The notes under the pieces were generated by a model. The model saw nothing but the letters and a program-made list of their open reading frames with translations. It made no database searches and had not been told where the DNA came from. From Pempheris klunzingeri (taxonomy: Eukaryota; Chordata; Actinopteri; Acropomatiformes; Pempheridae): 64,000 nucleotides of DNA. The position numbers were made by a program, and so were the translations under genes. Positions 29,142 through 63,266 of this stretch are shown piece by piece. The stretch is from the NCBI RefSeq assembly GCF_042242105.1, contig NC_092020.1, positions 3,275,001 through 3,339,000 on the forward strand. The letters run 5' to 3'. The first letter of the stretch is position 1; each line of letters starts with the position of its first letter.

Positions 29142-31870
29142 TGCTGAGGGCTGCTTTACTTTGCTGGTTTATTCATCATTCTTAAAAACGCCAGGCATGT
29201 TTTCTACTCAAAGACCTGCAGCAAGCACTACCCCTCCTGTTTTTTCCCCTACAGTTTATGGCAGACTAAAGAATATTAATGCAATCTGATGCGGTAAATG
29301 TACCCAATCATTTGTGATTGCTTCAAAGAGGGAGTAAAACTCAGATTTGAGGTCTCTTACAGGCAGGGTTTTATTTTCACTCAGCTCCAGAAGGTGGACG
29401 CAGTGTGTGTGCTCATGCCACGGGGAAATGACTTGCAATCCAAACAGCTGTAAATTTCAGCTGTAGAGCGGCCTGGGCCCATGTCAAGATTTTATAACTC
29501 AGATTGATTGGAATTATATAATGTTTGGCATGACTGACTGACTCCACTGAATGGATCTGTAAAAGGAAAAGCATCGTGCAGGAGCTCGGCTCATAAAGAA
29601 GCCATGATAGATAAAGGCGGGGTCACCGGGGGCTGGAAGGACCGCTGCCGGCTGAGGGCTGAGAAATCTGACTGTGCCAGCGATTTTTGGAGCTGCACAC
29701 TGGGAACGTTTTAGTTCAGAATTTATTTCCCGGATTAGAACACATGGTGATCTCCTTTATTTTTGGCCTGCTGGGTCTGTGGAACTGGTCTGCTTCTATT
29801 GTGCTCTGCTTCTCATTCCCACTTTTAACCACCCGCACCAACATGAGCAGCAACAATCTTCTGCTGTGGACCACTGAGCATACCTCCTGCAAAAACTGGA
29901 GGTTAAGAAGCCAATTTTATTCAATTTTCAGGATTTTGATTTCAAATGTACCATGGCTCATGACAAGTTGGGTTTTCAAGGTGTTGTGCAAGTTAATGTA
30001 GTGTAATAAAAAGGTATTTGTTAAATGGTTTGGAAAACCAAGTCCTCAAAGGCTCAACGCCAGACCCTTATATAGCAAACAGCAGGCTCCTCTAATTCAA
30101 ATAAGGTAAACCTGCTGAGAGAAGGCTTCACAAGGTGCTGCTCATTAAAATGCTGGTAACTGGAAAGATTAGGAATTCTTCACAGAGGGGAGCCAATCAG
30201 AATCAAGTCCAGCTGCGATGTGTTAACTGGAACTAGTCCAATAAATCTGAACTGTTTTTAAAGAAACTATAACCATTAAAACTTGATGATGCTTAATTGT
30301 GTATTGTTATGTTATGTATATAACAGCATTTACAAGCGTTATCTTTAAAAGGCCCTAAAGGTAATGACGGTTTTAGGGATGCAGCTCTTCAGCCGCCGCA
30401 CAAAGGCGTGTGTCAGACACCTGGGAAAGAGTGGGATAAAAGGGGCAAGTCTTTGAAGTAGTGAAAGAGTGGAAGAACATTGTAAATTCACGCAATCAAT
30501 TTCATGAAATCAATCAATGAAACTGGCTAAGATTTGTCAGTTTAGTAGCCAATTCAGCACGGCTAGTGATCAGTTAAGTATTTGTTCAACTCGTTATTTC
30601 ATTTACAAGATTTGAACCATTATTTTTACTTTTACTTTACTTTTACTATTAGAAGTTCTGAGATTGTGAAAGCTACAAAATACACTTGCCTTGAGAATGA
30701 CAAACTTAACTTATATTATTATATGATTACGTTAGCATTTGTTAACTTTGTAGGATGCTCTTACATGACATGGCATTCATTTGGCAAGTGCTTTTGTCCA
30801 GTATTCCCAGCATGCATTGCATGTGAGTTAACCTTCCAGAATCCTACTTTACCTTGAATTTAAATGAAGTTACATGATGGAGACTTGCGTGTCTTTTCAT
30901 GTATGTTGCTGAGTCACTGGTATCATCTTCCGTATTCATTATCAGTATTCATGTTATCACTTACCCCCACAGTCATTAGTCACCTCTGCTGCACATGTGA
31001 AGTCTGTGTTACTAATGCTGGTCTGAATGATGAGGGGGTGTGTGGTATGATAAACTGAACCTGAACATCCATCATGAGAGAATGATTGCAATTGGGAACC
31101 AATCTGACAAGTCAGTCCGACATAACAGCTGTTAGCAGAAGTATCTATGCAGAGGATGTTGAACCTGGTAGATGGACTTGGCGAGTAACTTTAAAGTGCT
31201 GGAGAGTTCATGTTTTTACTGAGTAAGTGACTGGCACATATTATTAAAAACTGCACGCGCAACCCAGTGGAGCGGACTTGAAACCCTGCCAACTTGTACA
31301 TTTTAGCAACAGTGTCTACTAGATTTGGCAACAGGTTTGGTTTCAGATCCCTTTAGCGACTTCAAAAAGAAGCTTGGCGACAATCTAGCAGCTTTTTGGC
31401 CATATAATGAATACTCTCCTTTGAGGAGAGCAGCCTAGTGCTCGATGAATCTGCAGACCTCCTGCTGGTTGTGGCTGAGGCTCAGCAGCGTCCTGTGATT
31501 GTGAACCACATAAAGTACGCTCGCCTAGTTTTGTTTTTAGATGAAAGAGTGTTTCGGCTTCTTTTGTGTTTTCACTGTGAATTTCTATTTGAACGGCGCC
31601 TCACCACAATTGTCACTCTGCTGTAGCTTTCATTTCATCAGTGTGTTTTAATTATTAGAATTCACTGTCGAAATTGTAAATTACGACCATGACTCATTGA
31701 AAATGTTCCACCCTCTCAGCTCTACAAAGCTGTCAGCTTATCTTGATAAAACAGTTGCAGGGGAGAGTAAGTGGGGCTACTGAAATAGTGGCATACTTCA
31801 GGGATGAAAACATTGGTTATTCCTTGAGCAGTGGGCTTGGTTGATGAAACAGCTCACCAGGCATGTTTAT

Positions 31871-32064
31871 TTAACCCTAGAACAGTTAATAACACCATCA
31901 CTAATGTCGGGTATATATTACAGTACAACAATACTATATAAAGGCTCTAAAATCAGTGAAAAATTAGGGAATCCTTAACGAAAAATTCCTTAAAAAGAAA
32001 AAAAAAAACACACAATGAAAATCGCGTTGGGGAAAATCACCCGACGTTAGTGTTCTGGGGTTAA
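31871..32064. mobile_element. piggyBac-type miniature element (MITE) with TTAA duplications
   Basis: A 186-bp element (31,875-32,060) is flanked on both sides by TTAA, the target site duplicated by piggyBac transposases. The left end reads CCCTAGAACA and the right end, reverse complemented, CCCCAGAACA. Both then share CTAAtGTCGGGT / CTAAcGTCGGGT; the left copy carries a 16-bp insertion between the two blocks. There is no coding capacity, so it must have been moved in trans. Confidence 0.75.
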
Positions 32065-32401
32065 AGGCAAACTCAGTGTGCATTACATTAAAATACACGT
32101 GCACACATCCATTCACTCATTTTGACCACGAACTCTACCTGAATTGGGTTTAATTTGACATTAATGTTGTTGGTGTTGATGAATTTAGTAATACTCCTTT
32201 GGATATTCTTCATTTTCACCTAAAGCTGCCAAGATAGAAATAGAAATAGATAGAAATACTACAGTAACCAGTTACAGAGAGTCCCTGTTACTATAAGAGC
32301 ACGATGACGTGGTCTCACAAGCAGCTCTTGCGTTTGATATTCTCATTTCGGCAAAGGATGCTGTAAATGCAAAATGGTCATCATGCTATCATCACGGAGG
32401 A

Positions 32402-32415
32402 CCACAAGAGGGCAG
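32402..32415 (+). promoter_or_regulatory. CTCF-like motif
   Basis: CCACAAGAGGGCAG fits 13 of 14 positions of the CTCF core CCASYAGRKGGCRS. It lies about 140 bp before the RE1 pair. Its forward orientation is opposite to the CTCF-like motifs on both sides. Confidence 0.35.
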
Positions 32416-32543
32416 ATGCGGCTCACAAGTAAAAACAGTCTGTGAGGAAACCAAGATACTAAATTCATCTGCTGCACCTGTGGGCTGAAAGCAGCTTGGA
32501 TCCAGACAGCTGGACTAGGAGTGTGTAGCGTTGGCTGTAGCAG

Positions 32544-32564
32544 ATCAGCACCACGGACAGAGAC
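32544..32564 (+). promoter_or_regulatory. RE1/NRSE site (REST binding), copy 1
   Basis: Contains TCAGCACC, a 2-bp spacer (AC) and GGACAG in the canonical arrangement of the 21-bp neuron-restrictive silencer element. 16 of the 19 informative positions match; the deviations are the first base and two in the final CGCC-type block. REST represses neuronal genes outside neurons. The nearest downstream gene is sncb, whose predicted first exon lies about 1.9 kb away. Confidence 0.65.
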
Positions 32565-32572
32565 ACACTCAT

Positions 32573-32593
32573 TTCAGGACCTTGGACAGCACC
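32573..32593 (+). promoter_or_regulatory. RE1/NRSE site (REST binding), copy 2
   Basis: TTCAGGACC, a 2-bp spacer (TT) and GGACAGCACC match the RE1 consensus at 17 of 19 informative positions; the ending CACC is a common natural variant. The start lies 29 bp after that of copy 1, on the same strand. A close pair in one orientation is unlikely by chance. Confidence 0.7.
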
Positions 32594-32631
32594 TGAGTGC
32601 TGCTGTGTGGAGGAGGAACTGGTGTTTATAC

Positions 32632-32873
32632 ACACTGTTGCCCATAAAGTTGGAATAAAATGTTTTTTTACCTCTTCTCATGAAATGATTGTGACAATGT
32701 GATTTATTCTTGATGATAAATAAAGTGTTTATCTTCTCAACTTTATTGATCAAACTCTTCCGAACATATCACAGTGAAACTTAAACCACAATGAACCTTT
32801 GCAAACTGTGGATTCAGGCTTTAACAAAATTGGGGGTGTTGAACAATTATTCCAACTTTATGGGCAACAGTGT
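32632..32873. mobile_element. Tc1/mariner-type miniature element (MITE)
   Basis: Perfect 26-bp terminal inverted repeats, 32,632-32,657 and 32,848-32,873, begin ACACTGTTGCCCATAAAG. The right end is flanked by TA; the left equivalent is CA, probably a mutated TA target. The 240-bp interior has no transposase frame. Identical ends suggest a fairly recent insertion. It starts 39 bp after the second RE1 site. Confidence 0.75.
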
Positions 32874-34429
32874 AGTAAGTTATTCACAGGGTGAAACACA
32901 AGATCATGATGATTATCTGATTCTATGTTTCCCTATAAATAGACAAAATCCATAGGAAGAAAACGTGTATTTCCTCTCCTGCCGTACTAACGCATGGGAT
33001 GTGGGTGTTATAGTTTAGCTGCTAAACTTGCTGCTTGTCTTTGAGGGACACTGTGGCACATAATGGGGGGCCACAGCCACAGCACTGCCTACTCATGTTC
33101 ACTAGGCCCAGATGAGACAGGACAGGACAGGACAATCCAAGGAGATGCTGCTGTCTGGGATTTCCTCAAACAGGAGGGGAGAGGGTGGGGGGAGAAGGAG
33201 GGGGAGGATTTCGCAATCACTCGCCCACTACAACGAGGATGGCGTCACTACACGTACGTCAGAAAGGGGGTAAAAAAAAAAAAAAAAAAAAAGAAAGCAG
33301 GGGGGGGGTATTTAACCACCGCTGGGGCTGCGAGCTGACTCAGTGGAACGAGTGGTGTCCAGCGGCAGCAGCATTAGCCCGGTTTAGCGCGCACTGCTCC
33401 TCCCCGGTCCTCCCTGCTGTGACCCTGCAGACAGCATCATGACGTGATGGAGTGTTCGATACTCCACAGATTCGATCTGATGTCATCCTGCGCTCTGATT
33501 GGCTGAGGCGCGTTCCCTTCAGGCGTAACGCGGCACACGACACTCACGAGCTCCAGACTGCATGGCGTTCAATTTCAATTAAATATCCATCACCTCGTGA
33601 CGTTTTTAAGAGTGGAAAATATAAAATGTTTAAAAAAAAATCCTTTGGTTGGTGGAATTATTTAATTAAAATAACCATCACGCGTGACTTTGTGTGTGTT
33701 TTTCTTTTTAAAGGATCGATTAACTTCTCCAGCTGGTCCAAAAAGATCAATGCACTGCCTTTAATACCCCCCCCCCCCTCCCTCCCTCTCTCTGTAACAC
33801 AAAATGGTATCACTCTCAGATCAATGCCGGTCTACGCATGTCAGCATTGGTCTCCACATGGAGTGAGATGATTGGTTTTAAACGTGTCCCACCTCACCAC
33901 AGCCCACAGTTTACTGTGTAGGGCTCTAAATGAGCTGATTAGCTAATTGGGGCAGTTAAAAATAAACTATATGACATTACACTTTTATAGGGTGCTGGTT
34001 ACACCTCAGAATGGGAGACGGTTCAACCTGCACCAGCTTTCTTCGCATTGTTCAGTGCAAGTTAAACCCAAAATGGACTCAGCCAGATCCACTGGGTGAA
34101 GTGGGTCAAGTGGGCTGGAGGAAAAGTTAGTGGTGGTGTTATTTAGGAGGTGATAACTGCACCCACGCTGTCAAACAGACAGTAAAGACTCCATCTTATT
34201 GTACTAAACTGAGTTAATATAGTATAATATTCACATCACAGCCACGGGGCTTCTGCTACAGGAGCTCCTCTGGGCTCATCTTCCGTCCTGTGCCAGCTGA
34301 CATCTGAGGGTGATCAATAGTGGAGGGAGCCAGTGATGGAGGAGGGAGGGAGGGAGGGAGGGAGGGGAGTGAGGGAGGGAGGGGTGGCGGGGGGACGTGA
34401 TAGTCTCAGCCGCACCGTGAAGGGGGCCG
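32874..34429. other. Region upstream of sncb, possible distal promoter
   Basis: The GC content rises between 33,050 and 33,560, with several CpGs. A TATA-like TATTTAA lies at about 33,309. An A-run (about 33,271-33,292) and a G-run (33,301-33,309) precede it. No coding exon is recognised; an alternative noncoding first exon of sncb is possible but unproven. Confidence 0.35.
34338..34395 (+). repeat. (GGGA)n G-rich tract upstream of sncb exon 1
   Basis: Many GGGAGGG units followed by a run of six G give more than the four G-triplets needed for a G-quadruplex. It ends about 170 bp before the donor site of the predicted noncoding first exon, so it probably lies in the core promoter. Confidence 0.75.
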
Positions 34430-34563
34430 TCCCTGTTGGTGGAGATCAGCCCGAGGAAGGCCCACCTAGTGATCACTTGAAAATATCTCCCGTTTAGACG
34501 ATAGTAGGTCTCGACTGTGCGCCTGAACCATAAGGGGACGAGTTGAAGACTATTTGTAAATAG
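34430..34563 (+). other. sncb: sncb predicted noncoding exon 1 (5' UTR)
   Basis: A strong donor, AAATAG|GTAAGG, ends the exon at 34,563. Vertebrate SNCB has a noncoding first exon followed by a coding exon that starts a few bases after its acceptor, and that layout fits here (acceptor ending at 35,589). The transcription start is not visible; the left boundary is a guess. Confidence 0.45.
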
Positions 34564-35595
34564 GTAAGGATTCCTTTTTTATTCTGGTGCTCCTTTATTA
34601 TTGTCATTTTTTTGAGCTTATAGAGGTCACCACCGTTTGAGGACCATGCATGTGAGCGTCGTCATTGCGAGGCACAGGTTTGCACCGTGATATTCCCGCT
34701 GTCCGTGTCCGATTATTCCTCATTTGAGTGTGAGAGGCGAACAGATGCAGCCTGGCTCGGATGGCAGAGTGAGAAATGGTCGGCGTCGTGAATTGTACAT
34801 GTAGTAACCAAAGGCTTGACCTGTTAACATCCAGGATGGGGCTGTGAATGGCTCTGTCTGATCTAACAATATAATTCGCGCTGTTATCCCGCAGCCTTGT
34901 CTGTTATTGTTGTTGTTTTTTGTTTTTTTTGTTTAGTTTTTTTTATTAAAATGTCCCCCTGAGTGTGACCGGACAAGCTCACGTTGCATCCACATGATTC
35001 TACGTTAAAAGCGCGATGCGTGCAGATATGATAGTGGGAGTCGTGCCTCCCTTCCCCCAGCAAGTGTAGCTCTTGCAAATACATCCACCACCTTCCAGTA
35101 TGATGTGCTGCACGGTCCGCTGAAAAGGCCTGCGCTTTTTTTTTTTTTTCCACATTTGCAGCACTGTCACCTCGCTGCCACCGAGAGTAGCATTACAGCC
35201 GAGCAATAATTAATGAGCGCCTCAGCAATTAACCATTTCATTGAAATCTTTTTGCCTTTGAATATTTCATGCTTTGATGAGGATGTGAAAAGGGGGTTGA
35301 ACGCATGAGTGAACAGAGGGTTTTTACTACAGCCTGATGGCTGGACTGCAGCTGTCAGGATCTACCACAGGAGGCGGTGCCGCCTTCTCTTACCACCACC
35401 TAAAGTCCTCTCATAGACTGGTGGCCATAGAGGTTTGTGGAATTACATGGGAGTGTAATGAGTACAGCTGCTCATTAATAATAGGAGATATCACATGCCA
35501 TCCATGCATATCAATAAGATAAGAACTCACAAGCACCCAGTGACAGCAGCGATGGTGACTGACAGCAGGTGTGGTCCGTCTCTCCACAGGCCAAG

Positions 35596-35716
35596 ATGGA
35601 TGTGTTTATGAAGGGTTTGTCTAAAGCGAAAGAGGGGATGGCTGTGGCCGCGGAGAAGACCAAGGAAGGAGTTGCGGTCGCGGCTGAAAAGACTAAAGAA
35701 GGCGTCATGTTTGTAG
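35596..35716 (+). CDS. sncb: sncb coding exon 1
   Basis: Residues 1-40 plus the first base of codon 41. The acceptor AG ends at 35,589 and ATG follows six bases later in the context CCAAGATGG. Donor G|GTAAGA, phase 1. Confidence 0.95.
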
Positions 35717-38700
35717 GTAAGACGATCACATGCGTCTGTTTGCGGGTTTATTACACATGCAGATCAGACACAGGCCCCATTGAGGCTGCTAACGGTCCTG
35801 CTGGGTGCAGGGAGAGAGAATATCTCATGATTTAGCTCCTGCAGCATTCCCACACGTCCTGGAACAAATGGTTAAATTATACAACAACTTCCTTCACTGG
35901 CGATAAAGAGCAGAATCCTGCCTCCCTCATACATGGAAGAAGCCAGCAGACTCTGTGTGCTGCTTAGTTTATAACCTATAATACACCATTGTAACACAGT
36001 TAGGTGACAATAACACACTGTTATGGTTTCCTCTGTATGACAGATGCAGATGTTTTATTGTCCTCAGTGTGTGGAGAAAGTTAAAATGTCTGATATTTCA
36101 CAGTGCACGGCGTGATGAGTCAAACTGAATGTGCTCCCTTGGTAAATGTAGAGGAGCATATTATAGCAGTGGTTATTTCATAAATTGGTTAGTCTGACAG
36201 TTGATCAATTTGATCCTCATTTTACTTATGCAGGCTGATGCAGTATTAAAATAATTGAGTGTTTACTCCAGTATGAGTAGTTTTAAAAAAGATACACTGG
36301 AACACGTAGTTATTTTGACGGACATGATGTGATATGAGGCTCTGAATGTCCTTATGCCCTCTCGCCTGACTTGACTGGGCTACAGGCAGGAGATGGGAGC
36401 AGGGGTGGGGGTGGGGCAGCAGGATGGTGGGAGCAGCTCTTGCCACATGTCCCTGCATTGGACGGCAGCAGATTGTAAAACAGTCTCAGCCCGCGGTCAC
36501 CTCCTGCACACAAGCAGACTAAAGGCCTCTTCTTTTGTCCTTTACAGTGCAGCTTAATTTGTAATGGACACCATTACAGGTATCTGCACAGGTCGGTGCC
36601 TCCCTCCCCCCCTCTTGTGATTTTAAAGTGCAGTTGGCAAGTACTGTATGTGCATTATGTTATAAGGCCAGTCTATTTCACTTGATTTAGGTCATTGTTT
36701 CAATAAACACGTGACATGGAGGTAGAGGGACACCTGGAAAAGGTTAGCGAGCAGCTGGGCAAAGGTACAATAAATAGAAACTGACAAAAACATCGTCTGA
36801 GTCTCTTTGATCATCTTGTGTTCAGAGCTAAACGTGAAAAAAGACCAACTCATATTCACTCGTGAAGGCAGTACCATGCATAATTTAATTATCTTTGTTG
36901 CTGGGCAATAATTCAGGGTTATTCTTTAATGGTGTCAAATCATTGTGAAATAATGAAATTTTAATGTCATTATAACCAATGCTAACCAGTTCTATTGTCT
37001 AAATAATTAATATCAAGCCTCATAAATTCAAATGTTGAACAAAATGACACCTGCTATGTTCTAGAGAAAACAATGTGAGGTATTATGTTTTGGTTTTAAT
37101 GTATCTCAGGCTCAGCCGATGATTATTTTCATCATTGGTTAATCTAAATACTGAAACGCTGTTTTCTGTATTATTCAGTTAATCATTTGATCTATAAACT
37201 AAACACTTTTCCCTAAGAGTGACATCTTCAGATTGTTCCTCACCAGTTACATGTACATGTACATGGTTACATAAGATAAAGAAAAACAAACTTTTCTCAC
37301 CATTGAGACGCTGTAATGTTTGGAGATTTTGCTTTGAAAATGTCTAATTTACCACACGTTTATTGTAATGAGCATAATTTATAATGTGATTTCATATATT
37401 TTACCAACTGTGTACCTATACTGACAAACATCCCCTTTTTTGTGATACATCTTGTCTTCCACACTGGCCAGCTCTGCTTGTTGGCCCACAGTTGGTCTGT
37501 ACGGGGTGAGTGGGGAGGCGGGGGTAGTTGCGTCAGGGGACTCAGAGCTGGGCACAGGCCCTGGAACCTGCCAGCCATTACAGATATGTATTTTGTCAGT
37601 TGTCAGAGGGCCCAAACTTCCTGTGACACCCCTGCTGGTAGGACTACAGTCCCCAGCTCGGACTGCTGATCTGGTGACGCTCTGATTTCTTGGGGTATTC
37701 CAGGAGAAGCTGTCAGATGTGTGTGTCTGCATTTGGATGGAATCCAATTAGCCCACATATTTAGCACCATGGCTCTGTCACTCATCACGACAGTCAAACA
37801 TGTCAGTCAAAACATGTGCAGGCTCATTTTCATCGTCTCCATGCTTTGTCTTATCTTGCCTTTTGCCTGTCGTACGCAGAAAGCGAAACGAGAAGAGTTT
37901 CTGTGACATCTCTGTGCTTCTGTGTGTCGCGTGTTGAGCATGGTGGTGCCCTAGAAAGCTGCGTATGATTTGCTTGAAGGCCCCTCTTGGAGGAGGGGTA
38001 AGAGTGATCTGATAGGTCTGTGGCCCACCTTTTGACAGCTGCTGCTGCTGCAGACCGCCCACCCAGCTGAGCTGAGCAGTCAGCCTGAGTAAGGCAAGAA
38101 GGGGAGGAGGAAACCAGAAAGCCCTGCTGTACTAGCTGCCATTCAATCTCACAACGAGCAGTCTCATTCATAGAGCATCCACTGTATGAACCCCATTCTG
38201 ACATGGTGGAGTATTTATAGTGCTGCTTTAAAACTAATGTTACTCATTTTATGAACCCTTACGCCGTAGCAGCCAGAGTTTAATTCAATACAACACAATT
38301 ACAGCTGTTTCTAACATTTGCTAAACCATTGCTGTAGCCTTAAACAGCATTACAAAATAACAACAGTCTTATCATCAATATGATGCTAATGTGTAGGTGT
38401 TCATAATGTATTTAATGTAGAAATTAAACTTTATTTTTTATGTTTTGTGTGTATCAAATGTCTTCATTCCATAAACATCAGGTTCTAGCTGAGAAAAGAA
38501 TCTGATCTGAGAAATGAGAAAAAAATTCTAGTAGGTATTCGTCTGGGTATTTTATAACCACTAAGAAGTCTTAAATCTTTCTTCCCCTTCAACATATTTT
38601 TTCTTATTTTCCAGTAAACACTTAATTGGCTCGAAACACGTTTCTCAAAAGACATCGTTAAAGCTGTTGTCATTAAAGGAATTTGGTCATTTGGTCCTAA

Positions 38701-41700
38701 GGGTTTTTTCCTTGAGAATAGTAAGTGTTAAAATAGCAGAAGTAACTTGTAACTATTATTATTTCTCATTTTCACCCAGAGCTAGCATCCATTTGTGTCA
38801 CTGTAGCTCAGTAGCTGCACTTCACCAAAGCTGATGCTTAAATGGATGCATCTCTTAGATGTATGTTTTGCTTTGAGGCCAGCCTTTTGTAGTGAGGGTT
38901 CTGTACTTCATCATGATTTCGGTTCTCCTCGGCTGGCTTTTAGAGGCCCTCGGGGACCAATAAAGCATGTGACTGCTGCACAGTAAAGAGGATGACAAGG
39001 CTTGAGTGATCAGGACCAGTGGGCACGCAGTAGATTGCCCAAATAGCTCGCTGGAGCCCTGTGTGGATGGATGACATCTGCCAAAGGTCAGAGAATTGAA
39101 CAATGCAGTGGTCTTGTTTTAAACGAGCTGCGAAGTTTAATAACTCTTGACAATGAAAGTACCAAGAAACCACAAAGTGTTGCAGCCGTGATTGTCCCCT
39201 AGTACCTCTGCAGCAGTGACAAACGGTGAATAAAATCAAATTGGCATTGGCACTTATATGAAAACCAAGTGGTTGTTTCAAATTCACAAATTTAAGCTCA
39301 CAGTTTGTTTTGAACAGCCAGGAGCAGGATGCTGCAGAGCTCAATCTGTGAATTAATACTGTTCTTCTTCATGTCACGTGTTTCTTCACTGTGGCATCGA
39401 GGTGTCATGAATCATGTGTCAGGTCGATGACACTTCATGACCTGCCAAAGTGTTAAGTCGCTCAGAAATTGTGCATTTTAAAAAAGTACAAGTCAGGTTA
39501 AAATGCAGACTGCTCTGACTTTTGTTAATTTTACTGTGAATGAATGGTAGTTGTACCTCAGTGGTTAGTTTCAGGCAAATGTTAAGTTCCCGTATCTGCA
39601 CACTCATAAAACAAAATTAGTCTTGAAATGCGAAGCGTCAAGCGATCCCTGAGCGAGCCGAGAGCTTTTCTAACAGAGTTCTTTTTTTGTTTATTCAGGT
39701 AACAAGGCCAAAGACAGCGTGGGCACAGGTGAGTTTTCTGTCTGTTACTTAAACCTAAACGTCATTACTGCAGCTTAGTTTCATTACAGTGAAGGGACAC
39801 ATGAGTGGGTGAGCGTATGTGGTTATTACGTACAATAATCAATAAAGAAACAGAAGAGGGCTAACATCATGCATTTAATTTGCCTGCTGAATGAGATATT
39901 GTTACATGTGTGTGTACATGATGTGTGTGTGTCTCTGCAGTGGCTGAGAAGACCACTGGGGCCGTTGGGAACATCGTAGCAGCGACTGGCCTGGTGAAAA
40001 AGGACGAGTTTCCTACTGACATGAATGTACGTACACCGTTACAGTCACCGTCAGCTCCCTCCTAACACACACCGGTTTAGTGTCCTCACTGTGCTCCTGT
40101 TATATGTGACAAAGTATTGCAGTGTGTTCACATCCTGTAGAGGAGATCACATCAGAGGTGACACAGACGTATATACATATATAAAAGTATTGTCAGTGGT
40201 GGTCAGTGTTGCATTTCTTTGATCCTATTTTTAAGTATATACAACCAGGGCTGCAACCATCTATGATTTCTATATGAATCTATGCGCTTTCGTCAAACAT
40301 CTATTTTTTATGATTGAATCTATACATAAAAAATTCAGATGATTCAATGATGTTGTCAAATTGCTTCCCACAGTCCAAAACTTAAAGCTATTACATAAAA
40401 TAATAAAAGAAAACACTGGAAAAAATACTTACTAATTAGTGGATCGACTAATCACTGAGTAATTGTTTGCATCTTTTCCCTGGTCCCTTATTCTGTACAT
40501 ATAATATATACAATATACTGATGTAGTAGAGCTGCAAATATAGTCAATACAACTTCAAAATGCATTTAAAGTCATGAAAAACTTCCACCAGATTTAGGGA
40601 CTCGCAGGACACAGATTTAAAAAAGACCCTGATGACATCAGTGAATTGCCCCTTTAACTGCACATTTATAATGAACTGACTGCAAAGCCTGTGTTGAACA
40701 TGCATGGTAACAGTGCTTATCATCTTACTGGTATTCTTGATTGAGCCTTTGAGCGTCTGTGCACATGTGCCTGAGAGCAAGAGAAAGAGAGAGAAACCTC
40801 AGCTTCAGAGCCAAGACTCACTTACAGTTGGCATCCGGCTGTAAGTTGTGATCATTAAAGTTTGGACGGGATTGTTGTTGTAGCAGAGCCAGATTTATGC
40901 AGAAGGAATAAACACAGTTAGAGTTAGTGGTCCACATTTCATCTGACCTGTTCCTCTGCTATCAGCAAAGACACTTACTGTACTTAAGTTTCTCTTTTTA
41001 CCAGAGGAGGTTTGTTAGACATTTGTATATTAAAGTTAAAAGTTGCACACTCTTAGCCACGGTGTAAGAAAATTTATTGAAATACATCTTGGGATATTAA
41101 GGGACACAACGGCGAAAACCACATCAGAGAAGCACGATAAGCTTGATCAAACGCTTAAGTTACCACAGCGCGTTAGACAGCAACACCTCCATGTTGTATT
41201 TCCTGTATAGTGTTTGCTGCCGTGTCCCTCGTTACCCCGAGGAAGGCTCTCGTGCTGAAATGTCGGTACACTTAAAATCAATTTTCATGCGTTGTGGCTA
41301 CGAGTGTGCGACTTCCCATCTCCCACATGTGTATTTTCATCGTGGTCAGCACGTCTCCAACACCAAGTTAAAAGCATGTTTCTCAACCCTGGGAAGAATA
41401 AAACAGAACCCTCCACAGCATTATTCTGCACCGAACTGCTGATTGATAGATTATATACAGCCAAAATAGGGGGGAAATTGCAGTAAGCTTTGTTTAACAG
41501 TGGTTTTATTTGAGGAAGCTTTAGGGTTTCTGGGGATGAATTGTTGTTCCACAGTCTGTTCTACACACAGAGCTGCCTTCAGTCTATAATATAGCCTCAG
41601 TTCACAACCTATTTCACTCCTCAGGTGCTTTAAATAACTTGAGCCGTCTCTCTGTGGGACTATCATCTCGCCTCAACACACAACTTTTCCATTACTGTAC

Positions 41701-50439: not shown

Positions 50440-52084
50440 ATGGGGAGCCTGAAGGACGACATGAGAGGTCTCAGGGAAGACCACAAGCCTTGCGAGAAGA
50501 CGGATGATGGAGAGCGTCCAGGCGGCTCAGCTGGCAGCCCGCAGCCCGAGGGAGCTCAGACAAACACGAGTCAGGAGTCAACAAGTCAGGAGGACCATCA
50601 GCCAAACGCTCACGTGAATGACGACGGGCCAGCATCCAAAGATCAAGTGGTGTCAGGAGGGCTCGGTGGCTCTGGAGAGTCTAAAGAGGAGAAGGACTCA
50701 GCACAGACTGCCGCCATCCCTCTGATACAGCAGTCTGAAGCCGGTGAGACAGACACACATAACGACACCACAGTCTCCAGTAAGCTCCAGGGCGATGGAG
50801 GTGGAGGTGGAGGTGGAGCAACGTCTGAGGTTGAAAGCATGGGTCATGAGGGAGAAAAAGAGGCAGCAAGTGGGAATATCTCCGTGCCTGTGCCATCAAC
50901 TCCGGGCCCCTCCGACCCACGCTCCCCAGCCCCTGTTGGCCAGCACCACATGCGCACGCAGGTGAGCCTGGAGGTGGTCCAGTGCCGCTCCGCAGCCACC
51001 AGCCCCATGACGCCTCCGGAGGGCGCACACTCCTTCATCTTCCCGAGCTCCATTGGGAGATCCGTGGGCGCCGACACTAAGGATGCTGAGCTACAGGTGG
51101 GTCGGCGTGTGGAGTTGTGCTCCGTTGCCACGTCCCCCATGACCCCAAAAACGCCCTCCACCTCAGCTTTCCCGGAGCTGGTCGGGAGAGAGACGGTGCA
51201 GAGGGAGGAGAGAGTGCCAGGGGGTGAGGGGCAGAGGGAGAGTGGTGAACAGGAGAGTCTCCCGGGAAGGAAAAGTCCAGCAGAGGTTCAGTCACAGATG
51301 ACTGGAGTTTTGAAATTCAACACACCAAAGGAGCTGAGTGAAGGCTTCAGCTCAAATGCATCTCCAGAGAGCTGCTCCGCTGCTGCTGCTGCTGAGGATG
51401 GAGGTTCACAAGTAACTCTGGAGGATCGTAAGCAGCTGAGGATGGGAAGTATGGATCAAGACATCACAATCCTGGTGACCCACCATGGCAACAATGAGGA
51501 GGAGGAAGAGGAGTCGTCTTTTCATCCCATCGAGCCAGAGATGGTCAAAATAGACGAACACGAGGAGCTCAGAGAAAACAGCAGTGATGTTCAGGACGCA
51601 AACACCCCCGAAGACCCCTCTGTGTCTGCCATTGATGGAGCAAAAGCAGATGTCAAATGTGAAAACAAAGGTGCATGTGAAGAGGTCTCTGTGGCAAAGC
51701 CGACTGTCCCCGAATCTCCAGCCCCCTTCGGCTGCCACAACATCCGCACCCAGGTAAGCCTGGAGGTGGTGCAGTGTCAGTCTGTGGCCACCAGCCCCAT
51801 GACCCCTCCTGAGGGAGAGCAGGCCTTCTACTTCCCCAGCACCCTCGGGACGTGTGTGGGTGTGGCTGCAGAGACTAAAGACGCTGAGATGCAGGTCGGT
51901 CAGCAGGTGGAGTTTCGCTCCGTCGCTACAGCACCCATGACCCCCAGAACACCCACCATCCCAGCCTTTCCTGAGGTCAGGAGGGAAGCAAGCATAGAGG
52001 GGAAGATAGTGGAGGAGGAGGAAGAGGAGGAGGAGGAGGAGGTGGAGGATACAAAAGAGCAGGTGGTGGAGGACAAAGAGGAAA

Positions 52085-52115
<31 letters not shown>

Positions 52116-52563
52116 GGAGGAGGAGGAGGAGGAGGAGGAGGCAGCTGACAAGCAAAAGGTGGCTGATGAGGACGCAAAGGAGGCAAGAAATTGTAAGGAG
52201 AAATGTGAGGAGCCGGTGCAGGAGGTGAGCTGGGACGAAAAGGGGATGACATGGGAGGTGTACGGGGCGGTGGTGGAGGTGACCGTGCTGGGCTCAGCCA
52301 TCCAGAAACACCTGGAGAAACAGGTGAAGAAGCAGAAGAGGCAGCCCTCCATGCCTCCCCCTCCGCCGCTCAACCCCTCAGCCATGCCCCTCTCCTCAGA
52401 GTCAGCCCAGGAGGGTCCGGGCGTAGGTTCGGGTAAGGCCCGGGCGGGGAAGAGGGGAGAGCGGGATGGGGAGGTGTCCCGCCGCAGAAGAAACCCTTTC
52501 CGTCTGATGATGGAGAACATGCAGCAGCCACACTGCTGCTCCAGAGCTCACACCACTGAGTGA
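50440..52563 (+). CDS. gprin1: G protein-regulated inducer of neurite outgrowth 1
   Basis: One uninterrupted coding exon of 707 residues. GPRIN1 binds activated G-alpha o/i/z subunits and promotes neurite growth at the membrane. The C-terminal GPRIN domain is clear: [36 protein letters not shown] (about 593-630), a proline-rich stretch, then [20 protein letters not shown]. Cysteines 699-700 fit a palmitoylation site. The rest is acidic and disordered. Residues 162-251 and 426-516 are two copies of one module. A run of 17 Glu occupies 551-567. Human GPRIN1 is about 1,000 residues. ATG lies 25 bp after an acceptor, so the 5' UTR is spliced. Position next to sncb and tail to tail with cdhr2 supports GPRIN1 over GPRIN2/3. 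Confidence 0.93.
50923..51192 (+). repeat. gprin1: gprin1 internal module, copy 1
   Basis: Encodes residues 162-251: [54 protein letters not shown] and AFPELVGRE in this order. Confidence 0.9.
51715..51987 (+). repeat. gprin1: gprin1 internal module, copy 2
   Basis: Encodes residues 426-516 with the same landmarks in the same order: [54 protein letters not shown] and AFPEVRRE. Confidence 0.9.
52090..52140 (+). repeat. gprin1: Coding (GAG)17 repeat in gprin1
   Basis: 17 consecutive pure GAG codons encode a Glu run (residues 551-567), preceded by a shorter Glu cluster at about 523-534. The antisense frames produce spurious poly-Leu, poly-Ser and poly-Pro open frames. Confidence 0.95.
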
Positions 52564-57145: not shown

Positions 57146-60100
57146 ACACTGACAGGATTGTGCTTCACTACAGGTCAGGTCAGTCATTTACCTCCAGTAC
57201 GGTGCTGCTGGAGAGGTCGCCGGTGTCAGTTGCAGTTACTCTTACCAAATACTTCCCCTTCAGTTTCATATCAAGAACCTCTGTGGTTCTGTGGAAAGAG
57301 GTGAAAGTCATGAGTGCAGCCATAAACAGATTGTGAGGCCCCTGGGCACAGACATGTGTCAGTCCACCCCAATCCACCCTCCTAAACAGGACCAGGGCAC
57401 CCAGACAGAGAGGGTGAGACATTTTGTCTCTTTTGTGTTGGTTTTGTGTCTCCTTGAAGTCATTTTGTGAGTCCCTTGCATCTCTTTATGGTTGTGTTAC
57501 ATCTCTTTGTAGTTCACAAAGCTCTTTTCAGCTGTTTTGCATCTTCTTGTGGTCATTTTACATCTCTTTGTAGTTGTTGGATTGACTTTGCCAGTAAGAC
57601 ATATTACAGTAACAGTCACCTCAAGCAGAGGCTCTGGTCCAGGGAGCCCCCCCTATCGATCCCCCTGGGCCTGTGCCCGGTAGGCTCGTTCAAAAATCCA
57701 CCCATGAGTGCAGCAGCTGTGGGGAATTTTAATACTACTTTTAATCACTACTTATAAAAAGGCCAAATATATAATACTGTGTGCCTTAAACTTGTACTAA
57801 CAACACTGTATGTAAAACTAATTACCGAACACTGGATTTGAATTAGCAATAATAACTGTATGACACACCTTAAAACACCTTAAATGAGAGAAGTTGCCTG
57901 TCCTTCATCGAAAAAAACGAACACGCGACACAGCAAACACCAAAGTGTCGTGTTGCGCGAACAAAAAAACACATGTTTAGGGCACAATGAGATCTGGCAG
58001 CATGATGCTGATGGATGACTTTGTACTCACTGAATAATTCCAACATAAATGTCCTTCTGCTGTGTGGTGACAGCCTCAAACAGTACCCTCCAGTTCTCTG
58101 TATGATTGTTGGTGTCTTCAAAGTGGACCGTTACAACTTTAAACTTAATCTCACTGTTTACTCCGGTGTCACGGTCTGTAGCCTGAGAACAGCAAGAGAT
58201 ACAAGAGAGAAGGTCTACAAATCATGTCACGAATGAGCTAAAATCATGTCAGTTATTTGTTTTTTATTTGTACTCACAGTGACTCCTGCAACTGATGTCC
58301 CCTTACTCGCACTTTCAGACACCACAACTAAAAACCAAAGAGAGAAATCAGTGTTAATCTTTATACTGTTGACAAAACAGGAAATCTTTACTGAACAAAA
58401 TATTATTTAAGTTAAATGTGAAAACACAGCCTTTGGTCTAACTGGTCATAAACGTAGGTCATGAGTAGACAGGCTTCAGCTCAAGGGATCACAAGCCAAT
58501 AAAATGCCTTTTTAGAAACATTTTGCTTACAGTCATACAATCTCAGATATAAACTCACCAAATACAGACTCCGGATCAGAGTGAATGAACTTTGGAGCAT
58601 TGTCGTTGATGTCTTCAATGTCGATCACCATTTCTCCTGAAGTAAAGTGACAGGAGAAGTTTGTGCTTTTACTCATTTCATTTCTTTTCTTTTAAAAGAT
58701 TTTTTTTTACTGTAAATGACCCAGTGCTGACCTGTTGTGACACTGTTGTTCTCTCCTTTCTCTGTGTACTCGTCCACCACCTGAGCCTCTATCACCACCT
58801 GGTCACATTCTTCATAATCCAACGTGGTCTCCGGGTTCAGCCTGACTTCCCCCGTTGGATCCAGGATGAAGCTGCTGCAGGCTGTCAGAGAGCCGTTGCA
58901 TCTGCATTTCATGGACTCCAGCTCGTAGATCAGAGAGTGGTTTCCGTCTTTGTCCTGCCCCATAAAATTCCCAACAGTCCCGTTGATGATGGTGTTCTCC
59001 TTCACTGTCACGGATTCCATCGGCTTGAACTCGGGCCTCTCATCATTCACGTCAATCACCTCCACCTCCACCATCACTTCGGCTTTCTTCTGTTCCAGAT
59101 CTGTTGCTTCCACCCGCAGCTTGAATTGCTTGCGAGTACTCTCATAGTCCAGCTCAATGTCGGGGTCCACGGTGATATTTCCACGATATCCATGCTTGTC
59201 TTTAAAAGTGCGAATGATGAAGCTGCCAAAGCTTCCATCAATGATGCTGAAAGATATGCGGTTAAATTCTGTCGTTTGGTCCAAATCCTCAGCATAAACA
59301 GAGCCCACATATGCACCTGATTGGAGGGGAAAATCAAGTTTTTTTCAATCTTTTTAACTTTAATCCAGCCACAAAGTTATGAACACTTCAAAGTGCTTTG
59401 CAAAGATAAATACTGACCTTTCTCCCCTTCTTTGACCGAGAACTTGTAATGTGACTCTTGAAATTGTGGTGTGTTGTCGTTACTATCCTGGGATGCATCA
59501 AAAGAAGACATTGACAGTTTTCATCCTCACCAGCAGCGGCAGCATCAGTAGCAACACAGCACCAGTATTTTGCTACAAACCACTACAGACTCACCTCTAC
59601 ATTGATGATAACTGTGACTGTGGCGGACAACGGGTCAGCACCCTTGTCAGTGGCAGTTACGTTGAGCTCGATTTTCCCATTCAGCCTCGGGTCCAGGGCC
59701 TCACGATCAATCTCACCTCTGTTTCTTAACACACCCGTGTCGGGGTCGATAGTGAAGTTATCACTGTATGTGCTTGGATCGATTTGATACACTATTTGGC
59801 TGTTTGGCTCATTGGCGTCATCAGCATCAGTAGCCTGTCCAAAAGAGAGACGTTAGAAGATTAAATATTGCAAGTACACCGCATTGTCAAATGTATGTGA
59901 AGAACAACCATATGTGACGTCCTAAACTATGGTCATGCTTTATAGCTTCTACGCTTCCTTGAAGGCTTTCCACAATATTCTGGCGTTAAGTCAGTGTTCC
60001 TGTTTATCCCAAAGATCTGAGGTCAAGTCAAGTTCTTTCACACCAAACTGAGGAAACCATTTCTTTATGGCCCTGTCTTTGTGCATTGTCATGTTGATAG

Positions 60101-60709
60101 ACAGTGCACAAAGTCGATGCAATGCTGTTGTCAGCGTTATAGAGTAAACCGATAGAGCACACATTTAAGGCATCTCTTAATTGGAAATAGGAGTATAAAG
60201 CCCAATTCATGAAAATCACTGCCAGACTGAAAGGAAATGAAAACATGTGGACAAAAGCGTCCATATCCTCCACCCATACAATTGTGAAAATAAATCTTAC
60301 TATTTCTATCTTCTAAAGTTAAGATGCACATATAAAGTATTTCTATTTTTCATTAACATAACAAAACCTGTGAGATTTAGATATTTAGTCATACCAAGAA
60401 TCGAAGAAATCAGAAATCCTGTTAAGAGCAGCATCAACACCGATGAGCTGTAAACATGTACCTCTATTTTGACTTCAAGCTGTCCACCCTCTGGAACAAA
60501 CACCACGTAAGAGTCTCTGTTGATGACTGGAGGCTGGTCGTTGATATCCGTCAAAGTGATCTCCAGCACTGTGGTGCCGGGCTTGCCGTCCGTGTCTCTG
60601 GCCTGCAGAGTCGCTGAATACAGAGATCTGACCTCGCGATCCAATAGAGTTTTGTTTTTCACGTAAACGGTGCCAGTATGTTGCTCCACATCAAAATACA
60701 GGAGTCTGG

Positions 60710-60746
<37 letters not shown>

Positions 60747-63266
60747 TGCTTAGTGGTGTTGACAGTGGCTGCATTCAAATAACCAAAATAAGTGGATGAC
60801 GTGCAGACATACATGCTGTCTGGAAGAAGTCTGTAGGTGATGTTTTGATCCATCGTGTCAGGATCCTCTGCCTAGAAAAAAAAAACATCTTACATGCGAG
60901 CTCAAAGTGAGAGGAAGAATCCGGATAGTGAAGGACTTACAGTGATGTTGGCCACTATTGTCCCAGCAGGAGAGTGCTCAGCCACCTTCAGCTTATACGT
61001 GTCCTGTTTGAACTTGGGGGTGTTGTCATTGGTGTCCATGATGTTAATGGTAACTGTGGCCATGGAGCTGAAGCTGGTTTCTTGATCTTTGGCAATCACC
61101 TGCACCACACCATGAGCGCAGGAGACACATCAGACTGGTACTGGTAAAACTAATATTATTATCACAGACTCATGGCCTGTTTGTAACTTTTCTTACCCGC
61201 AGAACTATTTGCTGTTTTTCCTCAAAATCCAGGTTTTGGGGCTGCTTGACCAGAAGCTGGACAACGCTGTCTGAGATGGTAAATTTAGGCTCCACAGAAA
61301 AAATGTCCTTGTCCTCTCCCTCCAGGCTTAGTTCAGTTTTGGAAACCTGTGAAAAACCCCATAAAAAAACAAATCTAGATTCACTCTTGATTAAAGTAAT
61401 CACTTACACATGCATTACAAGAAAGCCTTACCTTATCCAGATCTTTGACCGTCATGTTGATGGAAATGGAGCCAAACGAGTGCTCGGAGACCTCTCCTGT
61501 GAAGTGACTCGCCTCCACACAGGAGAGCTCGTCTTCTGAGCCTCCACACTTGTAAAACTTTGGCTTGTTGTCATTGACGTCGATTATGTTGATCTGTACG
61601 CTTGCTGTGGCGCTGGCATAGACCCCATGGATGTTCTGTTTAGACTCTCTGGCCTAAAATCAAACAAAATAGAGTAATTTGCCAAAATAACTGTTCTGAA
61701 TTAGATAAGATTCTCAAGACTGAAAAAGGAAGTCGGACTTGTTTTTTGTCCTCAGCGTCAGTTTTGAGTTTGTCTTGAGAGAAATCTGTCAAATGCACTA
61801 TGTACATCAGGCTAAAGAATGGTAAGTGATCTTTAAGAGACTGTATATAACATTAGTATTAGCTAAAGGGAGTTTGTTCCTTCTTTCCCATCCATAAGAG
61901 GCTTTTTTTCCTGCATGTTTTGGGATACTCTGAGTGAAAATGAGCAACTAATTTAAATGCATAATTGTATAGAATCACACCTTATTTGTTGTTCAGTTTC
62001 ACACACTAACGCAGGTGGTTTGGTTTGGTGTTCACGGGCAAATTCCTGTGTGCCTGTACAAGTGTCTCTAACCGTGTCCTCACAACCCACACTACCTTCA
62101 TCGCCTGCTTCTCTCTCATTAGAGGAGCCACAGGAGGGACAGTGAAGCTACTAGCTTATCAAGACGCCGCCCCCATGCCGAGCCTCACTCCCTGGGTTCC
62201 TTGCCACCTCCTCCTCCACCTCCCTTCGACCTGTGTTCATCTCTTCATGCTCAAACCCCTTTTCATAAGAGAAGCAGACAGAAGACCACCCCTTCTGTCT
62301 CTTGACACATTCTCCAAGGTGAGAGGAAAATATTTCTACTCTGCCAAACAAAGCTGTCGATATATTAGTCTCCATTTTCCTTTTCCATCTCACAGGTGTA
62401 GCTCAACACGTTTGAGAAATGCACTGAGAAGTGGCTTGTTGTTCTTGTTTTTTTTTGTTATTTTATAGGAATTTATGATGTATTACTTGAAAAACAACTC
62501 GTACCTTTACAATGAGTGTGACAGTGTCACCAACAACTTCTCTGTCAATTAATGATAACACAGATATGACGCCATCATCTCCAGAGATTTGAAACAGGCC
62601 ATCTACGGTGGAATCTGTCAAACAATGTGGAAAAACACAAAAAGGCACTCAGTGCAAACAACAAATTGATTTAACTTTGTTTTTCTTTTTAAGTTGATGA
62701 GGCTCACTTTCAATGCTATAGATGATATCATCATTGACTTCTGTGTCCTGGTCCATAGCAGTCACTTTGAACACAGACTGGTCCTGTCAAAGGAAAAAAG
62801 ATTTTCTGAAACAAGAAGATGAAACTCGCCTCATTTACTCAAAGCAGGCTGACTGCATGTAGATTTGTGTCATATCACACCACGATTGGCAGCAGCCTTC
62901 TCACACAAAATGGCCAAAAATATACACACATACTGGGCTTGCACAGGAGCTACATGTACAGTCCATCAGAGTTAACACAAAGAAATGTGAGTATGCGTCA
63001 TTTGTTTTTTAACTGATGGGGAAATACACTGGATGAAATATTATATCTTTCACTCATATGATCTTTTTCAATTACATATTATTAGTCATATTCCTATTAT
63101 CGGTACTATAGTTGCTGTTTATATCTGATGCTGCTCATGTGGGGATTCTTGAATCCTTAATGTTGAATTCCTGAATCGTTGGGTCTCTCTCTTAATTAAA
63201 GAGTTTGGTCTAGACCTGCTCTTTATGGAAAGCGTCTTGAGATAACGCTGTTATGAATTGGTGCTA

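What the first reader, a model, noticed from the sequence alone, without database searches (positions are those of the whole stretch)
32544..32593. Tandem pair of REST/NRSF (RE1) sites upstream of beta-synuclein
Two matches to the 21-bp RE1, both on the + strand and 29 bp apart, at 16 and 17 of 19 informative positions. The half-sites have the canonical 2-bp spacing. REST silences neuronal genes in other tissues. A double site about 1.9 kb before the predicted first exon of sncb (and upstream of the neuronal gene gprin1) would be a natural switch for the cluster. It may also act on a gene left of the window.
Basis: partly seen in the sequence, partly recalled or inferred. Interest (0 to 1): 0.78.

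Follow-up and report, generated by a model that had tools for sequence, protein, structure and literature searches.

The report
Tandem REST silencer sites beside beta-synuclein
Two adjacent, strong matches to the binding site of the neuronal-gene silencer REST lie about 3 kb before the protein-coding start of a fish beta-synuclein gene and probably help keep that gene off outside the nervous system; this is a good example of a known kind of control element.

Summary
Site 1 (32544-32564, +) matches the RE1 consensus at 16 of 19 informative positions and site 2 (32573-32593, +) at 17 of 19; the next best in the window is 14. Chance expectation in the window is 0.007 for >=16 and 0.0004 for >=17. 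In the 645.9-Mb genome a strict RE1 pattern that site 2 fits has 191 matches, its reversed control 0. The 16-bp core of site 1 is letter for letter an element that restricted transgenes to brain in zebrafish (PMC3531662). The pair is single copy. Direct RE1 pairs are rare: 17 independent ones at 19-111 bp spacing, 16 of them at 28-54 bp, none closer. This pair has 29 bp. The nearest recognised gene is sncb (first coding exon 35596); no Pfam domain was found in the 40 kb scanned to the left. The three other synuclein genes have no RE1 >=14/19 within 5 kb upstream. Conservation in other fish and REST occupancy could not be tested, and the sncb start site is unsettled. Best reading: a tandem REST silencer of sncb, a new member of a known kind.

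The parts
32544..32564 (+). RE1/NRSE site 1 (ATCAGCACCACGGACAGAGAC), 16 of 19 informative positions; core 32545-32560 identical to the zebrafish REx1 element
32565..32572 (.). 8-bp spacer between the two 21-bp sites (29 bp start to start)
   Evidence: compared with genome-wide pairs
32573..32593 (+). RE1/NRSE site 2 (TTCAGGACCTTGGACAGCACC), 17 of 19 informative positions; one of 191 strict RE1 matches in the genome
32633..32872 (.). Repeat with 26-bp terminal inverted repeats, a MITE-like insertion that begins 39 bp after site 2; its left part has at least 39 other close copies in the genome. Not part of the RE1 pair.
   Evidence: 40 matches scored of 1305 candidates, one being the window itself; ends read by eye
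35590..35727 (+). First coding exon of sncb (acceptor at 35589, ATG at 35596), the likely target gene; 3' end as matched by Pfam
39931..40005 (+). Part of a later coding exon of sncb (68% over 25 aa to the C19 synuclein exon, E 1e-7)
50440..52563 (+). gprin1 (GRIN_C, 3e-35), second possible neuronal target, about 17.8 kb downstream

Best explanation
The pair is a tandem RE1 silencer. In non-neuronal cells and neural progenitors one REST molecule binds each 21-bp site through its zinc fingers (two molecules side by side, 8 bp of free DNA between the sites) and recruits CoREST/HDAC and related corepressors, which holds the downstream sncb promoter closed. When REST falls in differentiating neurons, sncb is released. 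Shown here: two sites far beyond chance, single copy, in the direct-repeat arrangement and spacing range that this genome's RE1 pairs use, nearest to sncb. Inferred: that REST binds them in this fish, that both are filled together, and that sncb is the target.
For: Match counts and chance expectation. Genome-wide excess over reversed controls (191 v 0; 1727 v 87). The site 1 core equals REx1, which gave brain-only expression in transgenic zebrafish; the two-site REx2 construct gave the highest brain-only share (26.4%), and Rest knock-down de-repressed non-neuronal expression in REx2 lines (PMC3531662: passages incl. part of the abstract, and one section). The same paper reports, citing Bruce et al. 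[quoted passage not shown] Direct pairs exceed chance: 16 independent at 28-54 bp spacing v about 0.06 expected. sncb is the nearest recognised gene. Zebrafish sncb is expressed mainly in the nervous system (brain, spinal cord, retina) and has a noncoding first exon (PMC4663547, passages).
Against: No occupancy, expression or conservation data for this species. Zebrafish sncga is also neuronal, yet the three other synuclein genes here have no RE1 >=14/19 within 5 kb upstream, so RE1 seems not to be needed for neuronal expression in this family. RT-PCR found zebrafish sncb transcript already at 4 hpf, which argues against complete silencing in early embryos. REx2 did not suppress muscle expression from the hsp70 promoter, and four sites (REx4) also suppressed brain. 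Four literature searches showed no report of SNCB as an RE1/NRSF target, though one listed paper was not opened. The promoter position is unsettled.
Confidence: 0.72

Rival explanations
1. REST binds the pair, but the main target is another gene (gprin1 downstream, or a gene more than 42 kb to the left) or a distal regulatory element, not sncb.
For: RE1s can act at a distance (general knowledge). gprin1 is also a neuronal gene (recalled) and lies in the same orientation 17.8 kb downstream. The left flank is a long stretch without Pfam domains, where distal elements are usual.
Against: sncb is the nearest recognised gene, 3.0 kb to the coding start, and is itself neuronal in zebrafish.
Confidence: 0.15
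2. Only one site matters; the other is a redundant or weak copy, and the pair works as an ordinary single RE1.
For: In zebrafish a single core (REx1) also gave brain-only expression in at least 10% of embryos. Site 1 departs from the consensus at positions 1, 18 and 20, site 2 at 6 and 19.
Against: Each site is far beyond chance, and direct RE1 pairs at 28-54 bp are strongly over-represented.
Confidence: 0.25
3. Chance or repeat-borne sequence without function.
For: A MITE-like repeat begins 39 bp away, and repeats elsewhere in the genome carry RE1 arrays (C17:21.33 Mb, C24:9.77 Mb).
Against: Window 32380-32615, which holds both sites, has only its own match in the genome; chance expectation is below 0.01 for either site. 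The two sites differ in sequence, so the pair is not a fresh duplication.
Confidence: 0.03

Closest known systems
REx2 element of zebrafish transgenics (two NRSEs, PMC3531662)
   Same: Two different direct RE1 cores side by side; one core identical to site 1 here; same proposed action (silencing outside the nervous system)
   Different: Artificial, 27-bp spacer between 16-bp cores (here 13 bp), placed at a basal promoter rather than kilobases upstream of a coding start
Tandem canonical RE1 motifs within 1 kb of mouse Snap25 and 'Cels3r' (PMC2573930, a REST ChIP-PET study; passages seen)
   Same: Tandem canonical RE1s close to a neuronal gene
   Different: Other genes; their exact spacing was not seen here
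Ordinary single RE1/NRSE sites (1727 with <=1 mismatch to the 16-bp core in this genome)
   Same: Same 21-bp motif and canonical half-site spacing
   Different: Two copies 29 bp apart; of the first 30 of 191 strict sites, read with their flanks, 0 had a second site >=15/19 within 60 bp (one at 64 bp)

Membership tests
RE1/NRSE (REST binding element) | Match to the 21-bp consensus, both half-sites | tested here: met
   16/19 and 17/19; chance 0.007 and 0.0004 per window. Consensus recalled; its 16-bp core is confirmed by PMC3531662. No published weight matrix was available.
RE1/NRSE (REST binding element) | Canonical 2-bp spacer between half-sites | tested here: met
RE1/NRSE (REST binding element) | REST occupancy in cells | not testable with these tools
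   no ChIP data held
RE1/NRSE (REST binding element) | Near a neuronally expressed gene | tested here: met
   sncb and gprin1 by Pfam; neuronal expression of zebrafish sncb from PMC4663547 (passages), not measured in this species
RE1/NRSE (REST binding element) | Conservation in related fish | not testable with these tools
   only the window's own genome is held; 'It has no relatives here'
Tandem RE1 (two sites in one element) | Two direct RE1s at a spacing shared with other pairs of the same genome | tested here: met
   29 bp; 16 of 17 independent pairs lie at 28-54 bp

The most novel reading that the evidence does not exclude
The pair is an instance of a fixed 'double RE1' grammar: close REST pairs in this genome are mostly direct repeats at 28-54 bp, with a hard lower limit of 28-29 bp (two REST molecules packed against each other) and perhaps helical steps near 29, 38 and 47, so that two REST complexes cooperate on DNA. 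Pairs would then be a distinct, stronger class of silencer.
Probability: 0.3. Interest if true: 0.55.

Novelty: new member of a known kind. Interest (0 to 1): 0.36.

Why it matters
It offers a direct candidate for the element that confines beta-synuclein expression to neurons in a fish, for which four literature searches showed no REST-linked report. The spacing counts found on the way give a testable rule for how two REST molecules share DNA.

Tried and rejected
Looked for RE1s at the other three synuclein genes (5 kb upstream each, plus about 1.5 kb each side of the exons that one search found): none >=14/19. Looked for a gene to the left by six-frame Pfam scans of window 1-30002 and the next 10 kb: none at E <= 0.001. 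A gene without a Pfam domain or with short divergent exons would be missed, and window 30001-35595 was read in two + frames only, no minus frame. A search for an expected left neighbour (UNC5 family) did not complete.

A looser pair pattern (110 matches, reversed control 27) was swamped by repeat arrays and was not used for statistics; only its first places were listed. Dropped from the pair counts: of 37 matches belong to the C17:21.33 Mb minisatellite, 10 to the C24:9.77 Mb array, and 1 is the second copy of a duplicated C11 locus (82% identical over 528 bp); 17 remain. Flanks were compared only for the loci; short flank repeats are shared by L046, L063 and L064 but do not cover the pairs. 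The four pairs kept were not checked for shared flanks.

Helical phasing of the 16 spacings is weak (permutation p 0.046) and was tested after seeing the data. Enrichment at exactly 29 bp, leaving this pair out, is 2 of 12 (p 0.055). The lower limit and the 28-54 range were also noticed after the counts. The direct-over-inverted figure used 14 of 17; the right count is 13 of 16 (p 0.011), with gap ranges of 3-33 (direct) and 0-30 (inverted) that differ slightly.

A strong splice donor for the noncoding sncb exon 1 was not found, so the start site stays open. Literature: SNCB with RE1 or NRSF gave three papers; two were opened at passages and show no SNCB-REST link, the third (PMC9606821) was seen only as a listing; two searches gave nothing. 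Searches listed further papers, of which only PMC3531662, PMC2573930, PMC4004051 and PMC4663547 were opened. In PMC4004051 the REST entry is the ordinary monomer motif split in two. PMC4227642 mentions a 'double RE1' once and was not opened.

Full report
What is there. The window lies in a 645.9-Mb genome at G000:C9:3275001-3339000. Two RE1 sites stand on the + strand at 32544-32564 (ATCAGCACCACGGACAGAGAC) and 32573-32593 (TTCAGGACCTTGGACAGCACC), 29 bp start to start, with 8 bp between the 21-bp sites. Against the recalled consensus they score 16 and 17 of 19 informative positions; the next best places in the window reach 14. Under a first-order Markov model of the window, 0.0069 places at >=16 and 0.00036 at >=17 are expected over both strands. 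Both have the canonical 2-bp half-site spacer.

Genome background. A strict pattern (TTCAGNACCNNGGACAGNNCC) occurs 191 times in the genome and its reversed control 0 times; site 2 is one of the 191. The 16-bp core TCAGCACCNNGGACAG with up to one mismatch occurs 1727 times against 87 for the reversed control; PMC3531662 reports 1102 such sites in zebrafish (section read). The sequence around the pair (32380-32615) has no second copy, so there is no sign that a repeat brought the sites in, although a repeat with terminal inverted repeats (32633-32872) begins 39 bp downstream.

Pairs. Direct pairs of TCAGNACCNNGGACAG were counted at start-to-start spacings of 19-49 bp (20 matches), 50-80 bp (10) and 81-111 bp (7); reversed controls gave 0 in all three. 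After removal of two repeat arrays (C17:21.33 Mb, 9 matches; C24:9.77 Mb, 10 matches) and one copy of a duplicated C11 locus, 17 pairs remain: spacings 28, 29, 29, 29, 37, 38, 39, 41, 45, 46, 47, 48, 49, 50, 51, 54 and 100. So 0 of 17 lie at 19-27, 16 of 17 at 28-54, 0 at 55-80 and 1 at 81-111. Chance would give about 0.06 pairs at 28-54 (from at most 1727 sites). Inverted pairs with 0-30 bp between cores are fewer: 0 convergent and 3 divergent, against 13 direct with 3-33 bp between (p 0.011 for 13 of 16). The present pair is therefore one of a small set with a shared arrangement and sits at the short end. Weak signs of helical phasing (p 0.046) and of a preference for exactly 29 bp (2 of the 12 other pairs at 19-49 bp, p 0.055) were looked for after the data were seen and are only leads.

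Neighbouring genes. The first coding exon of a synuclein starts at 35590 (acceptor 35589, ATG 35596); part of a later exon is at 39931-40005. A GRIN_C gene (gprin1) follows at 50440-52563, and cadherin-domain exons lie on the minus strand at 58673-59344 and 60306-60749. This order agrees with what I recall for human SNCB, GPRIN1 and CDHR2, so I name the gene sncb. Leftwards, no Pfam domain was found in window 1-30002 or in the next 10 kb, while the same method recovers sncb; window 30001-35595 was scanned in two + frames only. sncb is thus the nearest recognised gene, 3.0 kb from site 2 to the coding ATG. The noncoding first exon could not be fixed: no donor of >=8/9 consensus positions in 32.6-35.6 kb; the windows with the highest CpG ratio are 33301-33600 and 34501-34800, and a TATTTAA and a TACGTCA lie near 33.3 kb.

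Paralogues. The other three synuclein genes (C12, C19, C20) have no RE1 >=14/19 in 5 kb upstream or in the roughly 3-kb stretches read round their exons. RE1 control near the gene would then be particular to sncb among the four. Zebrafish sncga is also neuronal (PMC4663547, passages), so this family can be neuronal without a nearby RE1, if the same holds in zebrafish.

Mechanism. The 16-bp core of site 1 is identical to REx1, which by itself gave brain-only reporter expression in at least 10% of zebrafish embryos; two different cores (REx2) did best at 26.4%, and Rest knock-down released non-neuronal expression in REx2 lines (PMC3531662, passages and one section). Against a simple dose rule, REx4 also suppressed brain expression, and REx2 did not suppress muscle with the hsp70 promoter. 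The paper states, citing Bruce et al. [quoted passage not shown] Zebrafish sncb is expressed mainly in brain, spinal cord and retina, though RT-PCR found its transcript by 4 hpf. The best reading is a two-REST silencer that keeps sncb off outside neurons. Binding, double occupancy and target are inferred.

Verdict. Real, well above chance, and of a known kind: tandem canonical RE1s are reported within 1 kb of mouse Snap25 and 'Cels3r' (PMC2573930, passages). New is the locus and, as a lead, the narrow spacing range of RE1 pairs in this genome. Conservation and occupancy remain untested.

Noticed in passing
G000:C17:21334638-21334928 (L058-L062): A minisatellite with 46-bp units that carry a perfect RE1 core (TCAGCACCGCGGACAG in at least six units in a row): a natural REST-site array.
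   Followed up: no
G000:C24:9772927-9773638 (L065): RE1 cores alternating with CA-repeat stretches, a second natural array of such sites.
   Followed up: no
L038 262-1311 (G000:C4, about 2.432 Mb): 23 RE1-like copies (15-16 of 19, mostly AACAGCACCATGGACAGCACC) on one strand, all at distances that are multiples of three, perhaps a coding repeat that mimics RE1.
   Followed up: no
L053/L054 (G000:C11:1099905 and C11:26048291): A duplicated locus (82% over 528 bp) in which both copies keep a double RE1 at exactly 29 bp; L053 also carries repeated left half-sites (GGTGCTGAACGGTTCCT).
   Followed up: partly
window 32633-32872: MITE-like element with 26-bp terminal inverted repeats; at least 39 other close copies of its left part.
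   Followed up: partly
tandem RE1 pairs (L047, L048, L049, L052, L063): Five second sites have the rarer CAGGACC form (as site 2 here), which looks more frequent than among the listed single strict sites; numbers are small and were not tested.
   Followed up: no
window 29115, minus strand: A possible RE1 with a 15-bp half-site spacer (8 of 9 and 8 of 10 positions), the only other gapped hit at that threshold in the window; probably chance.
   Followed up: no
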